From Filomicrobium sp. (GTDB lineage: Bacteria > Pseudomonadota > Alphaproteobacteria > Rhizobiales > Hyphomicrobiaceae), in assembly GCA_017792465.1 (NCBI GenBank), contig CP051234.1:3442501-3506500 (forward strand): DNA of 64,000 bases, read 5' to 3'. Under the pieces are notes generated by a model. It was not told the DNA's origin. It saw nothing but the letters and a program-made list of their open reading frames with translations, and did no database searches. Positions 54,885-60,076 of the stretch are shown in pieces. Positions within the stretch are counted from its first letter, which is position 1; each line of letters opens with the position of its first letter. The translations under genes and the position numbers were made by a program.

Positions 54885-57305
54885 TTAGCCCGCAATTTTT
54901 GAGAAGTCGGCGACGTTCAAGGTGGCGGCGCGGATTTCGGACAAGAGCTTCAAGCGGTTTTCGCGCAAAGACGGATCGTCGGCGTTGACGGTGACGTCGT
55001 CGAAGAACTTGTCGACGGGGGCGCGCAGTTCGGCGAGCGCGCGCATGGCGCCTTCGAAGTTCTCGACGTTGATGGCGGCCTGGGTGTCGAACTTGACCTT
55101 GGCAATGGCTGCGGCGAGCGCGCGTTCGGCGGGCTCTTTCATGAGCGGGCCGTCGGGTTCGCCGTCGTAGGTCTTCTTGTCCTTCTTTTCCTCGATCGAG
55201 AGGATGTTGGTGGCGCGCTTGACGCCGGCCAGCAGGTTTTCGCCGTCTTCGGTTTCGAGGAAGTCTGTTAGGGCTTCGACGCGTTTGACGATGAGCGCAA
55301 TGTCGTCCTGGCCGGGCAGTGCGAAGACGGCGTCGATCAGGTCATGACGCTTGCCTTCGTCGCGCAGGTGCACCTTGAGGCGGTCGGCGAAGAAGGAGAG
55401 AAGGTCCTCGCGCATTCCCAAGATAAATGTTTCGAATTCGCTGTTGGTGTTTTCAAAAACAAATGCTCCCCGAGCTGGTGCACGTGGGATATCGCATTCT
55501 CGGTGAATGATCAGTGATCTGCGAGCAAACTCGGATAGTTCCCTGCCACCTTCTTGTGCCTGCCAGTTTTTGAATTCTTCGTATTCCATATGCCTAGTCT
55601 TAGGCAGCGCTTTGGAGAGGTTTTGTTCAAGGTCTTTGATGTTTTGTGCAAGAAGGGCGAACGTACCTAGAATGCCAGTTTTCTGAATTTCATTAATTGT
55701 CGGCGGTAACCATTCGTCGCTTTGTCGATTCCACCACTTGTGCACTTGCTCGAATGGGCGTCGATCAGCTTGATTGAAATAGCTCTCGATTGCATCGGCG
55801 ATCACAGAGTAGAGCGATACGCGCAGATCATTCTCCAGCAATATGCGGATGACGCCCAAGGCGGCGCGGCGGAGCTGGTAGGGGTCGCCGGAACCGGTCG
55901 GCTTTTCGTCGATGGCCCAGAAGCCGACGAGTGTGTCGAGCTTGTCGGCGAGCGCGACCGCGATGGCGACGCTGTCGCCGTCATCTTCCTTGGGGACCGT
56001 GTCGGAGGGGCCTTTGGGTTTGTAATGCAGCTCGATGGCGCGGGCGATCTCAGGCTTGGCGCCGCCCTTTTCCGCGTAGTAGCGGCCCATCAGGCCTTGC
56101 AGCTCGGGGAACTCGCCGACCATCTCGGAGACGAGGTCAGCCTTGCAAAGCTGTGCGGCGCGGCGGGCAGCTTCAGCATCGGCGTCGACGGCACCTGCGA
56201 TCTGGTAGGCCAATTCGGCGATGCGTTCGACGCGTTCTTTCTGGGTGCCGAGCTTGGCGTGGAAGGTGATGTTCTCAAGCTTGACCGCCATCTCGTCGAG
56301 CGGGTGCTTGAGGTCCTGGTCCCAGAAGAATTTCGCATCCGACAATCGCGCGCGGATGACCTTCTCGTTGCCGGCGATGATCTCAGCGCCGCCGTCAGCC
56401 GCGATGAGGTTCGACACGAGGATAAAGCGGTTGGCGAGTTTGCCGGTCTTGGGGTCTTTCAGCGAGAAGCACTTTTGGTGCGATTTCATCGAGGTGATGA
56501 GGCATTCGGGCGGCACTTCCAGGAAGCTTTCTTCGAAGGTGCCCATCAGCGCGACCGGCCATTCGGTGAGACCGGCGTTCTCATTCAGCAGCGCTTCGTC
56601 CTCGACCAGTTCGAGGCCAGCGTCTTCGGCCAGCTGGCGGGCGTCCTCGGCGATCATCGCGGCGCGCTCGGAAGAGGGCAGCAGCACCTTGGCGTCGCGC
56701 AGCTTGCGGCCATAGTCGGCGAAGTCGGTGACGGCGAAGGGGTCCTTGCCGTGGAAGCGGTGGCCGCGAGTCATGTTGCCGGCGGCAATGCCTGCGATTT
56801 CGAACGGCACGACGTTGCCATCAAACAGGCACAGCACCGATTGCAGCGGGCGGACCCATTGAAAATCGCCCGAGCCCCACCGCATGGATTTCGGCCAAGG
56901 GAATTTCGAAGCGACGTCGGGGATGACTTCAGCGATGATGTTGGGTGCTGGACGGCCGGGCTTTTCGATTTTGGCGACGTAGAAATCGCCCTTCTTCGCG
57001 TCGGAGACGACGGTTGCTTCGTCAATGGACGACAAGCCTGCGCCGCGCAGGAAGCCTTCGATGGCTTTTTCGGGTGCGCCAACGCGCGGGCCTTTGCGCT
57101 CATCGGAGATCGCGGGCGACATGGCGGGTACGTCTTCGATGACGACCGTCAGGCGGCGCGGGGTTGCAAACGACAAGCAGGCGCCATGCTCGAGACCTCC
57201 GGCCTTCAGCCCTGCTGAGACGAGACGCGCGAGGTCTTCGGCTGCGCGCGCCTGCATGCGGGCTGGAATTTCTTCGGACAGGAGTTCGAGTAGTAGCTGT
57301 GGCAT
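54885..57305 (-). CDS. glyS: glycyl-tRNA synthetase beta subunit, with in-frame insertion
   Basis: This is the beta subunit of the tetrameric glycyl-tRNA synthetase, which binds tRNA and works with GlyQ. Family marks include [22 protein letters not shown] at the start, [36 protein letters not shown] and the late [15 protein letters not shown]. It is 806 residues, about 110 longer than the usual ~690. The excess lies at about residues 505-622 (nucleotides about 55435-55790), where GC content falls to roughly 42-52% against about 65% nearby. The insertion keeps the frame. The start is ATG at 57305. Confidence 0.94.
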
Positions 57306-57398
57306 GGCGAAGGTATAGGTCTCCGAAAGGTGGGAGCCCCGTTCTAGTTCGCCAGCCAGTAGAAGTGAAGCCGTACGTTAAGCGGTTTGTCGCAGGGG

Positions 57399-57719
57399 CT
57401 ATTGGGCGGGGACGGTCGTGACCGGGCTCGTCGAACCTGTATCGGGCGCTTCGTTCTGGCTTGGGGCTGATTCCATTGCAGCTGGCTCGGCCGCGCCAGT
57501 GGGCTCGATGCCGGTGGGGTAGATATTGTTGACCTCGGTCAGGATCATGTTGCCCAGTTCTTCGGCCGCACCGGTGGTGTGCAGGTAGCCAAGACCGACG
57601 GCGATCAGAACGACCATGAACCAGAAGACCGGTTTTTTCAGGATCAGCCATCCGACTAACAGGACGGGGACGACCGCGAATGCAATTCCAATCCAGGGGT
57701 TGACTAGCTCGGGGCTCAT
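57399..57719 (-). CDS. small membrane protein between glyQ and glyS
   Basis: This 106-residue protein has two hydrophobic segments (WIGIAFAVVPVLLVGWLIL and FWFMVVLIAVGLGYLH) and a disordered tail rich in Pro, Ala and Thr. I do not recognise it. A small membrane gene between glyQ and glyS is common in Rhizobiales, so it is probably original to this locus. It starts after GGAGAAACTCTG and ends 93 bp before glyS. Confidence 0.7.
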   Translation of the reverse strand: MSPELVNPWIGIAFAVVPVLLVGWLILKKPVFWFMVVLIAVGLGYLHTTGAAEELGNMILTEVNNIYPTGIEPTGAAEPAAMESAPSQNEAPDTGSTSPVTTVPAQ

Positions 57720-57903
57720 CAGAGTTTCTCCGTCAGAATAGGGCGCGGTTTGCGGCCCGGCCTCGGTTTGTTTCTCAAGTTTTTTCGTGGGCCAGGATAT
57801 ACCGCGGGCAATCCGACATGGTTATGACGGAGCGGTTTGGGAAGAGCTTTAGTTTTTAAGTCTTTGAATTCGCAGCTGTCTTATTGCTTGTCGGGGCCCT
57901 GGA

Positions 57904-57958
57904 TCACGCGCCAGCACCGCCACCTTCGGTTGCAAGCCACGCGCCGCAGCAGGCTTTG
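57904..57958 (-). pseudogene. duplicated 3' end of glyQ (last 17 codons plus stop)
   Basis: These 55 bases match 58667-58721, the true end of glyQ, at 51 positions. Read leftward they encode the same 17 residues ([17 protein letters not shown]) and a stop. All four differences fall at third codon positions and are synonymous. The match stops abruptly at 57958/57959. It looks like the tail of an older or foreign glyQ allele left behind by recombination. Confidence 0.85.
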
Positions 57959-57967
57959 TTGTCGAAT

Positions 57968-58657
57968 TCAGTCTCTGGTCAGTTGGTAGAGAAGAAAGCC
58001 TGAGGCGAACAGAATCCAGGGGATGATTGGGTTCCAGAAAGGTATGAGCAATGCCGGTAGCAGGCCACCTCTTTGCCTTCCCATATTCGTCACTGGAAGC
58101 AAGGATACTCCCGCGACTTCGTAATTCTCTGGGTACATCAAGTCATTTGAGCCGAGGTCGTAAGACAGTTCTGGTAGGCCTCCATGAGGGGTGGGAATCA
58201 TTTGCAGTCTTTGCTTCCCCGGGCGTTTGTAAACAAAGGCGTGTGGGGACCCGATCGGCTCTCCATCAAGCGTATGAATAATTGCCACGTCTCGTCTGTG
58301 GAGCGCGACGATGATTTTTGTTTTTTCTGTCAATCCTAATGCGGCAGGGCCTCCGCGGGCATCGACAAACCAGCCCTTTTCAAACCGACCGTCGGGATCG
58401 TATCGCTGGATGCGGGAGAGGTGCATTGTGAATGTGTAGATTCGCCCATTTGGGCCAAGAAGCCCCTGGCCGGTCGATGGCAATTCAACGTAGTCGAGTG
58501 TTGATCCGGCTAACGGAACCAGCCAGCAGCCGAAAAATCCAATTGCACCGGCAGAAACTAGGACGCCAGCTATCGGATGCCCACGGCGATAGATGTTTCT
58601 AGCGGTTAGTAAGAAACCGACAAGAAACGCTACCAGGATCAAATAAGAGAGGTTCAT
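57968..58657 (-). CDS. orphan membrane protein inserted next to glyQ
   Basis: I do not recognise this 229-residue protein. It has membrane segments at residues 4-18 and 29-48 and at the C-terminus (PIIPWILFASGFLLYQLT). Between them lies a soluble part with beta-propeller-like phrases (GPNGRIYTFTMHLSRIQRYD, HTLDGEPIGSPHAFVYKRPG). Its composition is near 48% GC, unlike its neighbours. It begins 9 bases after the glyQ stop and ends 9 bases before the duplicated glyQ tail, so it fills the inserted segment almost exactly. Confidence 0.65.
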   Translation of the reverse strand: MNLSYLILVAFLVGFLLTARNIYRRGHPIAGVLVSAGAIGFFGCWLVPLAGSTLDYVELPSTGQGLLGPNGRIYTFTMHLSRIQRYDPDGRFEKGWFVDARGGPAALGLTEKTKIIVALHRRDVAIIHTLDGEPIGSPHAFVYKRPGKQRLQMIPTPHGGLPELSYDLGSNDLMYPENYEVAGVSLLPVTNMGRQRGGLLPALLIPFWNPIIPWILFASGFLLYQLTRD

Positions 58658-58666
58658 TCTCCGGGG

Positions 58667-59680
58667 TCAAGCGCCGGCGCCGCCACCTTCGGTTGCAAGC
58701 CAGGCGCCGCAGCAGGCTTTGGAGAGTTCGCGCACGCGCAGGATGTAGCTCTGGCGTTCGGTGACGGAGATCACGCCGCGGGCATCGAGCAGGTTGAAGA
58801 CGTGGCTCGCCTTGATGGCCTGGTCGTAGGCGGGAAGCGCGAGCAGGTGCTTGTCACCGCCGGTTCCCTTGTCGAGCAGCGATTTGCATTCGGCTTCGGC
58901 GTCCTTGAAGTGCTGCAGCAGCATCTCGGTATTGGCGTGCTCGAAGTTGAAGCGCGAATATTCCTGCTCGGCCTGCAGGAAGACGTCCCCGTAGGTGATT
59001 TTGTTTTCGCCTGTGCCGCCGTTGTAGTTGAGGTCGTAGACGCGGTCGACGCCTTGGACGTACATCGCGAGGCGTTCGAGGCCGTAAGTGATTTCGCCGG
59101 AGACCGGGCGGCAATCGTAGCCGCCGACCTGCTGGAAATAGGTGAACTGCGTCACCTCCATGCCGTTGCACCAGACTTCCCAGCCTAAGCCCCAGGCGCC
59201 GAGCGTCGGGCTTTCCCAGTCGTCCTCGACGAAGCGGATGTCGTTCAAGGTCGGGTCGATGCCGATGCGGTCGAGGCTTTGCAGGTAGAGTTCGAGGATG
59301 TTGGGCGGCGACGGCTTCAGGAGCACCTGGAACTGGTAGTAGTGCTGCAGGCGGTTGGGGTTTTCGCCGTAGCGGCCGTCCTTGGGGCGGCGCGAGGGCT
59401 GGACGTAGGCGGCTTTCCAGTTCCTGGGGCCAAGCGAGCGCAAGGTGGTGGCCGGGTGGAAGGTCCCGGCGCCGACTTCCATGTCGTAGGGCTGGAGGAC
59501 GACGCAGCCTTGCGCGGCCCAGAACTGCTGCAAGGCGAGTATCATGTCCTGGAAGGACTCGGTGGGGCGGAGGGAGTTTTTTTGTTGCCCAACACCCGAA
59601 TTGCCAGCGTTGGACAGGCCTGTTTTGGCAGATGCTGCCTGCGGCACCGATTTCTTGTTCTTCTTGGATCCCTTGCCCAT
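58667..59680 (-). CDS. glyQ: glycyl-tRNA synthetase alpha subunit
   Basis: This 337-residue catalytic subunit activates glycine and charges tRNA with GlyS. The class II core is intact: [60 protein letters not shown] and [20 protein letters not shown]. The first ~38 residues (Lys/Ser-rich, then [15 protein letters not shown]) are extra; residues 23-31 are encoded by a dispersed 25-bp palindrome. The 3' end is duplicated 763 bp downstream. The start ATG fits the promoter at 59716-59743. Confidence 0.95.
59589..59613. repeat. 25-bp dispersed palindrome inside glyQ, copy 4
   Basis: CCAACACCC and GCGTTGG arms with ATTGCC in the centre match the family in the spacers at 51.9 and 54.7-54.8 kb, with several changes. 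This copy lies in the coding region for GlyQ residues 23-31. Confidence 0.65.
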
Positions 59681-59715
59681 GCCTGAAGCCTGTCGATTGG
59701 AGTGAAAACTCGCGC

Positions 59716-59743
59716 ACTATAGCGATGCTCAGGCGTCTGTCAC
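59716..59743 (-). promoter_or_regulatory. predicted glyQ promoter
   Basis: Read leftward, GTGACA (59738-59743) and TATAGT (59716-59721) are 16 bp apart, about 35 bp before the glyQ start. The site would drive glyQ and the genes after it. Confidence 0.55.
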
Positions 59744-59869
59744 GTGGGCGTTTGTTGGGTCTTTCAGGGCATTATGCTGCATCTGCCGTATGCTGGCCTA
59801 ACTTGAGGTTGAGGCTGGAGAATTCCAAAGCGCAGACCGCGCTCAAAACCAAATCCAGGGAGAGAGAAC

Positions 59870-60076
59870 ATGGCTATTTTGAAAGTCCTCGAACTTATGA
59901 CCCATTCCGATAAGGGCTGGGAAGACGCCACGGCGAAGGCTGTCGCGAAGGCTGGAGATTCGGTCGACAACATCAAGTCGGTCTGGGTTCAGGATTTCTC
60001 GGCGACCGTCGGAAAAGACGGCAAGATCGATCAGTATCGCGTGACGTGCAAGGTCACGTTCGAGGTCAAAGACTGA
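59870..60076 (+). CDS. dodecin family flavin-binding protein
   Basis: This 68-residue protein forms dodecamers that store flavins. The sequence fits the family: MAILKVLELMTHSDKGWEDA, the flavin-stacking Trp in IKSVWVQDFSATV, and the closing YRVTCKVTFEVKD. GGAGAGAGA precedes the ATG. It is divergent from glyQ. Confidence 0.93.
   Translation: MAILKVLELMTHSDKGWEDATAKAVAKAGDSVDNIKSVWVQDFSATVGKDGKIDQYRVTCKVTFEVKD

What the first reader, a model, noticed from the sequence alone, without database searches (positions are those of the whole stretch)
57904..58721. glyQ 3' end duplicated, flanking an AT-rich orphan gene
The last 17 codons and stop of glyQ (58667-58721) recur at 57904-57958 with 51 of 55 bases identical. 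All four differences are synonymous third-position changes, so both copies evolved as functional coding ends. Between them lies one AT-rich membrane-protein gene, with 9 bases on each side. This fits replacement of the glyQ end by an allele from another strain that brought a new gene along, or insertion of a cassette that rebuilds the gene end, as islands do at tRNA 3' ends. No integrase is present.
Basis: partly seen in the sequence, partly recalled or inferred. Interest (0 to 1): 0.78.

Follow-up and report, generated by a model that had tools for sequence, protein, structure and literature searches.

The report
Old gene ending left behind
A small foreign gene has been slotted in behind an essential gene in such a way that the gene got a fresh ending and its old ending was left stranded further along; this looks like a readable scar of ordinary gene uptake, not a new mobile element.

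Summary
The last 17 codons and stop of glyQ (58667-58721) recur at 57904-57958, 51 of 55 bases identical, all four differences synonymous. Between them lies one 229-codon gene, 9 bp from each copy. Searches of related genomes found neither the gene nor a second tail. In some relatives glyQ is followed by the 106-aa gene that here lies behind the stranded tail. So the 763-bp segment is most likely a lineage-specific insertion into a variable glyQ-glyS slot. Best explanation: DNA from a close relative, carrying a glyQ end plus a passenger gene, recombined homologously inside glyQ and joined illegitimately 55 bases before the end of the resident gene. Such displacement is proposed in print for Vibrio immunity arrays. 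The genome has ComEC and a gene-transfer-agent-like cluster but no Ku match. No integrase was recognised nearby. Donor unknown; which tail is native is undecided. A sample of the same genome held one comparable but more ambiguous case.

The parts
58667..59680 (-). glyQ, glycyl-tRNA synthetase alpha subunit (337 aa)
   Evidence: PF02091 E 2.9e-145; 79-88% identical in the six same-genus genomes with a near-full-length match
58667..58721 (-). tail copy 1: last 17 codons and stop of the intact glyQ; probably the donor's tail
   Evidence: that it is the donor's is inferred from the gene order, not from the sequences
58658..58666 (-). 9-bp spacer with GGAGA (ribosome-binding-like) before the orphan ATG
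   Evidence: sequence
57968..58657 (-). passenger (orphan) gene, 229 aa: two N-terminal and one C-terminal hydrophobic helices, beta-rich middle with one RIQRYDPDGRFxxGW motif resembling an NHL-repeat blade (resemblance seen by eye)
   Evidence: one paralogue in the same genome at G000:C1:1329149-1329520
57959..57967 (-). 9 bp between orphan stop and stranded tail; the novel junction lies at or near its end
   Evidence: sequence
57904..57958 (-). tail copy 2: stranded glyQ end (17 codons and stop, no gene body); probably the resident's old tail
   Evidence: followed by sequence resembling the region before the 106-aa gene in G008
57720..57903 (-). 184-bp spacer between stranded tail and the 106-aa gene
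   Evidence: part of it aligns with G008's sequence just upstream of its 106-aa homologue (0 of 100 shuffles as good)
57399..57719 (-). 106-aa membrane-type protein, probable ancestral neighbour between glyQ and glyS
   Evidence: homologue downstream of glyQ in 12 of 29 relative loci
54885..57305 (-). glyS, glycyl-tRNA synthetase beta subunit
   Evidence: PF02092 E 1.3e-190

Best explanation
It is the scar of a one-sided homologous, one-sided illegitimate gene acquisition (homology-facilitated illegitimate recombination) in a variable slot between glyQ and glyS. A linear DNA fragment from a close relative carried the 3' part of its glyQ followed by the passenger gene. Inferred step 1: it recombined with the resident glyQ somewhere upstream of the last 17 codons. 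The result, which is shown, is an unbroken glyQ ending in one tail, then the new gene, then a stranded tail without a body that leads on to DNA of the old downstream kind. No promoter-like site was found between glyQ and the passenger, which starts 9 bp after the glyQ stop behind a GGAGA, so it is probably read with glyQ (inference). Prediction: recombination between the two 55-bp tails would delete the passenger cleanly and leave glyQ whole.
For: Copies differ at 4 of 17 third positions and at no residue, against 31-51% third-position difference to the seven relatives compared (six same-genus, one same-family), so both look like allelic working ends. Empty sites: in G007 the 106-aa gene starts at the glyQ stop; in G005 it lies about 285 bp on, with no orphan in the genome. 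Part of the spacer after the stranded tail resembles G008 DNA before its 106-aa gene, so that side is probably resident DNA. Where glyS was reached (19 of 30 loci, window included) the glyQ-glyS gap ranges from about -8 to 1404 bp, with different ORFs in it in different relatives. The orphan has lower GC and GC3 than its neighbours. Possible DNA entry routes exist: ComEC (PF03772) and a gene-transfer-agent-like head-tail cluster; no Ku match, so classical end joining is not indicated. The same mechanism is proposed in print for Vibrio immunity arrays (PMC5361080, passages).
Against: No donor was found and no strain of the same species was available, so the donor allele is inferred. No shift of nearest relative marks a crossover inside glyQ, though the relatives are too distant to show one well. 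No clear microhomology is visible at the junction; the donor side of it is unknown. Which tail is native is undecided. The spacer gave no convincing similarity to G002, G003 or G007 and only weak similarity to G005. Where measured, this kind of recombination is rare: 3e-10 per recipient in E. coli (PMC3240628, abstract), orders of magnitude below homologous recombination elsewhere (PMC5361080, passage). Tail statistics rest on 17 codons. An old internal duplication whose changes all fell on the working copy is unlikely but not excluded.
Confidence: 0.66

Rival explanations
1. A circular or plasmid-borne DNA carrying a glyQ end plus the passenger gene integrated by a single homologous crossover within the 55-bp tail (Campbell type), giving direct repeats at both sides.
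For: Gives exactly this topology, both tails flanking the insert; 55 bp may be enough for rare homologous pairing (general knowledge). The abstract of PMC3240628 names circularisation and single crossing-over as one fate of linear DNA in E. coli.
Against: The circle would be only 763 bp, with no replication or mobility gene recognised; no match to the orphan in the plasmid or phage collections.
Confidence: 0.15
2. A site-specific gene-end cassette: a recombinase supplied in trans inserts small circles at the glyQ 3' end and the cassette rebuilds the end, as islands do at tRNA genes.
For: Restored gene end, displaced fragment, synonymous-only differences, short defined repeat.
Against: No integrase recognised in the glyQ interval here or among the up to four longest ORFs shown for each of 29 relative loci (read by eye, no family search); the tail pattern hits 0 viral contigs; the orphan's paralogue behind a decarboxylase gene has no detectable duplicated end (local score 14 against up to 16 in 20 shuffles).
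Confidence: 0.08
3. Internal event without a donor: the glyQ end was duplicated within the genome when the orphan moved in from elsewhere, and the copies then diverged.
For: A paralogue of the orphan exists in this genome; the copies are nearer to each other (2 differences in the first 42 bases, 4 in 54) than either is to any of the 29 relatives compared (5 or more in 39-42 bases).
Against: A bodiless tail is free to change, yet all four differences are synonymous (about 0.004 by chance); the paralogues are only about 30% identical, so no recent copying of the gene between those two places.
Confidence: 0.09

Closest known systems
Homology-facilitated illegitimate recombination (Streptococcus, Acinetobacter, Pseudomonas; E. 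coli at low rate)
   Same: One homologous end anchors the DNA, the other end joins without homology; foreign DNA is gained next to a homologous anchor
   Different: Shown there in experiments; here it is inferred from a natural scar and the donor is unknown. Seen: abstract and outline of PMC3240628, passages of PMC5361080
Displaced 3' ends in Vibrio cholerae T6SS effector-immunity arrays and orphaned Rhs ends
   [quoted passage not shown] passages)
   Different: There the displaced pieces are toxin and immunity genes; here it is the end of an essential tRNA-synthetase gene, protein unchanged, with a passenger of no known kind
Minimal mobile element (Neisseria)
   Same: Slot between two conserved genes with different whole-gene content (definition read as a passage of PMC3898611)
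   Different: By that definition incorporated solely by homologous recombination; here one end is not homologous, and my comparison is between species, not strains
Insertion with long target duplication (Helicobacter pylori, often restriction-modification genes; Nobusato 2000, known to me only through a passage of PMC1643837, and a reference entry in PMC3031569)
   Same: Inserted gene flanked by a long direct repeat of target sequence
   Different: Here the two copies differ as two alleles do, and the cargo is no recognised restriction-modification gene
Islands in tRNA or tmRNA genes (Islander, PMC4383910; start of abstract in a listing)
   Same: Target end rebuilt, displaced fragment marks the far side
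   Different: No integrase recognised, protein-coding target, 763 bp

Membership tests
Homology-facilitated illegitimate recombination product | homology to the resident gene at one end of the insert | tested here: met
   the tail on the unbroken glyQ and the stranded tail are 93% identical alleles; the crossover itself was not located
Homology-facilitated illegitimate recombination product | non-homologous junction at the other end | tested here: met
   12 of 60 bases match upstream of the repeat, i.e. chance level at the orphan/tail junction
Homology-facilitated illegitimate recombination product | junction at short microhomology | tested here: inconclusive
   donor sequence beyond the junction unknown
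Homology-facilitated illegitimate recombination product | known donor DNA | tested here: not met
   apart from G000 itself no clear orphan homologue in samples of 59 relatives, 103 family, 397 order and 398 phylum genomes, which overlap; five weak hits, two read and both NHL-repeat-like by eye
Minimal mobile element slot | conserved flanking genes with different genes between them | tested here: met
   gap about -8 to 1404 bp in the 19 of 30 loci where glyS was reached, ORF content differing; glyS not reached in 11 of 30
Minimal mobile element slot | incorporation solely by homologous recombination | tested here: not met
   stranded tail shows one non-homologous join
Site-specific integrative element at a gene 3' end | integrase in or near the element | tested here: not met
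   the insert holds the orphan only, with no Pfam match, and the glyQ-glyS interval only the 106-aa gene besides
Site-specific integrative element at a gene 3' end | same target repeat used by other elements or phages | tested here: not met
   0 viral contigs with the tail pattern; no second tail in the other 46 order genomes whose tail matched the pattern
NHL-repeat proteins (passenger gene) | match to a curated NHL or other Pfam model | tested here: not met
   no Pfam family to E 1; only weak profile hits to NHL-like proteins

The most novel reading that the evidence does not exclude
This bacterium may add genes routinely by 'end displacement': gene-transfer-agent or transformed fragments anchor in a conserved gene, replace its 3' end and strand the old one, so that even essential genes act as landing pads without being broken, and the paired ends make each gain reversible. 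Stranded, synonymously diverged gene ends would then be a general, searchable fossil of single gene-uptake events.
Probability: 0.12. Interest if true: 0.62.

Novelty: new member of a known kind. Interest (0 to 1): 0.35.

Why it matters
It is an unusually clean record of what looks like one gene-uptake event: both alleles of the recombined end are still present and the junctions can be placed within a few bases. It shows how an essential gene can serve as an anchor for foreign DNA without losing function, and suggests a simple genome-wide search (stranded gene ends with synonymous-only differences) to measure how often genes arrive this way.

Tried and rejected
Gene-end cassette with recombinase: no support. 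Paralogue locus behind the ornithine-decarboxylase-like gene as a second tail duplication: not supported, best local score 14 against up to 16 in 20 shuffles; the seven same-genus loci read have other DNA after that gene. Second tail in G143: overlap of two contig ends. Crossover trace inside glyQ: none visible. Deciding the native tail from relatives: 10 to 14 with 5 ties of 29. RNA structure around the stranded tail: folds worse than shuffles, z 1.96, 198 of 200 shuffles at least as good. Promoter or terminator: in 57300-59900 one promoter-like site upstream of glyQ (0.7 expected) and one terminator-like site on the + strand inside glyQ (3.3 expected), none between glyQ and glyS. Orphan homologues: none in viral contigs, in genome contigs by the two narrow patterns used (177 stretches, none confirmed), plasmids, phages, NCBIfam above cut-off, PADLOC. 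A strict tail pattern in genome-contig hit two contigs, one match each, no duplicate. Fold search not run because the model is poor. Other repeats in the genome sample: dispersed intergenic repeats (L087 at 4-5.6 kb), low-complexity coding (L083) and a terminator-like repeat in G007 (L119) were set aside after reading the sequence; short-period repeats in L073 and one in L072, stretches in L087 at 15.8-18.8 kb and L098 that look like paralogous copies, and repeats inside coding genes of L062 and L063 were set aside on coordinates and ORFs without further tests.

Full report
What is there. On the minus strand the order is glyQ (59680-58667), 9 bp, an orphan gene of 229 codons (58657-57968), 9 bp, a second copy of the glyQ end (57958-57904), 184 bp, a 106-codon membrane-type gene (57719-57399) and glyS (57305-54885). 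The two glyQ ends match at 51 of 55 bases, 763 bp apart. The match stops sharply on both sides: 12 of 60 bases upstream and 15 of 60 downstream agree. About 2e-16 such repeats are expected by chance in the window (base composition only), and the repeat finder reports no other direct repeat of 35 nt or more within 6 kb in it.

Two alleles, not a decayed copy. All four differences are synonymous. Of the 162 possible single changes in the tail 41 are synonymous, so four of four by chance is about 0.004. The copies differ at 4 of 17 third positions; seven relatives (six same-genus, one same-family) differ from the window's glyQ at 31 to 51% of third positions where the residue is the same. The two copies therefore look like ends of two glyQ alleles from closely related lineages, brought together recently enough that the bodiless one has not decayed. 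The estimate rests on 17 codons. Over the first 14 codons (39-42 bases comparable) in 29 relatives, 10 are nearer to copy 1, 14 to copy 2 and 5 tie, so the native copy cannot be named from sequence.

Relatives lack it. The orphan has no match in the other 58 of 59 relatives or the other 102 of 103 family genomes. In the 397 order and 398 phylum genomes sampled there are, besides G000, five weak hits in all (the sets overlap, and one search used E up to 0.01). Two of the five loci were read; both hold NHL-repeat-like proteins by eye, sharing a short RIQ-type blade motif; the other three were not read. A glyQ-tail pattern with one mismatch allowed matched 47 of 397 order genomes; it says nothing about the 350 where it missed even their own glyQ. 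Two copies in one place occur only in the window's genome; the one other double hit is overlapping contig ends. A strict version of the pattern in genome-contig hit two contigs, one match each: a MAG titled Hyphomicrobium sp. and one titled Hyphomicrobiaceae bacterium. Local comparison of each relative's tail with up to 1.5 kb downstream gave scores of 8-17 in 29 loci against 47 in the window. In three of the 29 the score exceeded the best of 30 shuffles (L005 15/13, L007 16/15, L014 14/13) and in two it equalled it (L024, L028); none came near 47.

Which side is resident. A homologue of the 106-aa gene follows glyQ, at various distances, in 12 of 29 relatives; in G007 it starts at the glyQ stop. 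Part of the 184-bp spacer behind the stranded tail aligns with the DNA just before the 106-aa gene of G008 (score 22; 0 of 100 shuffles as good), weakly with the interval of G005 (3 of 100), and not with G002, G003 or G007 (22, 48 and 68 of 100). So the stranded side is probably resident DNA and the orphan side new.

A variable slot. glyS was reached in 19 of 30 loci (window included), with gaps from about -8 to 1404 bp; in 11 it was not reached within the stretch held, one of which is only 196 bp long. ORFs in the gap differ, including DUF4262-like ones in L009 and L025 (named by eye, no search). This resembles a minimal mobile element slot as defined for Neisseria (PMC3898611, passage), except that one junction here is not homologous and that I compared species, not strains.

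The passenger. It has no Pfam match to E 1, one NCBIfam hit far below cut-off, no PADLOC match, and none in plasmids, phages or viral contigs. Its own genome holds one paralogue, about 30% identical, behind an ornithine-decarboxylase-like gene and before an FRG-domain gene that matches PADLOC candidate PDC-S15. The paralogue argues that the ORF is a real protein. That locus has no detectable duplicated gene end. A model from two sequences is poor (mean pLDDT 53): two N-terminal helices, a beta-rich middle, a C-terminal helix. A membrane-anchored sensor or surface protein is a guess.

Mechanism. The simplest course of events is homology at one end and illegitimate joining at the other. The abstract of PMC3240628 describes this for three competent species and, at 3e-10 per recipient, E. 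coli. PMC5361080 proposes it for Vibrio immunity-gene arrays, including the shift of an old effector 3' end downstream, says that the process is rare, and mentions the same idea for Rhs genes (passages). The window's genome has ComEC and a gene-transfer-agent-like head and tail cluster at C1:805-819 kb; of eight ORFs scanned seven match terminase, portal, prohead protease, capsid, tail tube, DUF2460 and GTA_TIM families. A Ku search gave no match. These are possible routes, not proof. No crossover trace is visible inside glyQ.

A possible second case. Forty 20-kb stretches of the same genome (800 kb; twenty spread over the genome, twenty in its first 1.4 Mb), the window and the paralogue locus were scanned for direct repeats. 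One further gene-end duplication was found: the last 26 codons and stop of an Imm11-family gene, its spacer and the first codons of a Crp-type gene recur about 1.19 kb away (165 of 187 bases identical ungapped), with a 216-codon gene and an intergenic repeat between. It is more ambiguous than glyQ: the tails differ also in amino acids; the gene between is itself weakly similar to the Imm11-family gene (26% over 95 aa, E 0.009 for the single comparison), so a paralogue array with one decayed member would also explain it; and no same-genus orthologue of the Crp gene was found, so no empty site could be read. A 400-kb sample of G007 gave no gene-end case, only a terminator-like repeat. One against none is no evidence of a rate difference, and the window was chosen for its case and does not count.

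Literature searches. 'glyQ' with 'integration site' gave two papers, on essential-gene methods and a CRISPRi screen by the abstract starts listed. Searches for long target duplication, minimal mobile element and homology-facilitated illegitimate recombination gave the precedents above. 'Gene transfer agent' with 'Hyphomicrobium' listed three papers, none opened. One combined search gave nothing. I saw no report of a stranded glyQ end in these searches; that is not proof of absence.

Verdict. Observation confirmed; interpretation partly supported: allele replacement with a passenger gene, not an island-like cassette. It is a neat and testable scar of a known kind of event.

Noticed in passing
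L061:17720-19093 (G000:C1:217720-219093): End of an Imm11-family gene plus spacer plus start of a Crp-type gene duplicated around a 216-codon gene and an intergenic repeat; a bodiless gene end is left before the Crp gene. May be end displacement or a decayed paralogue array.
   Followed up: partly
L034:12624-14566 (G000:C1:1327623-1329565): Orphan's paralogue and an FRG-domain gene (PADLOC candidate PDC-S15) sit behind an ornithine-decarboxylase-like gene; the seven same-genus loci read have other DNA there.
   Followed up: partly
L064:5065-19234 (G000:C1:805065-819234): Gene-transfer-agent-like structural cluster with open reading frames matching terminase, portal, protease, capsid, tail tube, DUF2460 and a 1325-aa GTA_TIM protein.
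   Followed up: partly
L005 and L008 (G002, G003), glyQ 3' end: GlyQ of two same-genus species runs on past the usual GGG end into a similar extension of about 16 residues (ending HRR), so the glyQ end itself varies within the genus.
   Followed up: no
L009 and L025, glyQ-glyS interval: Two different DUF4262-like ORFs (named by eye) lie downstream of glyQ in relatives from different families.
   Followed up: no
L087:3960-5617 (G000:C1:453960-455617): Dispersed intergenic repeats; four copies seen of a palindrome-like unit close to CCAACATTCGGCA(A/G)GCCGATGTT within 2 kb.
   Followed up: no
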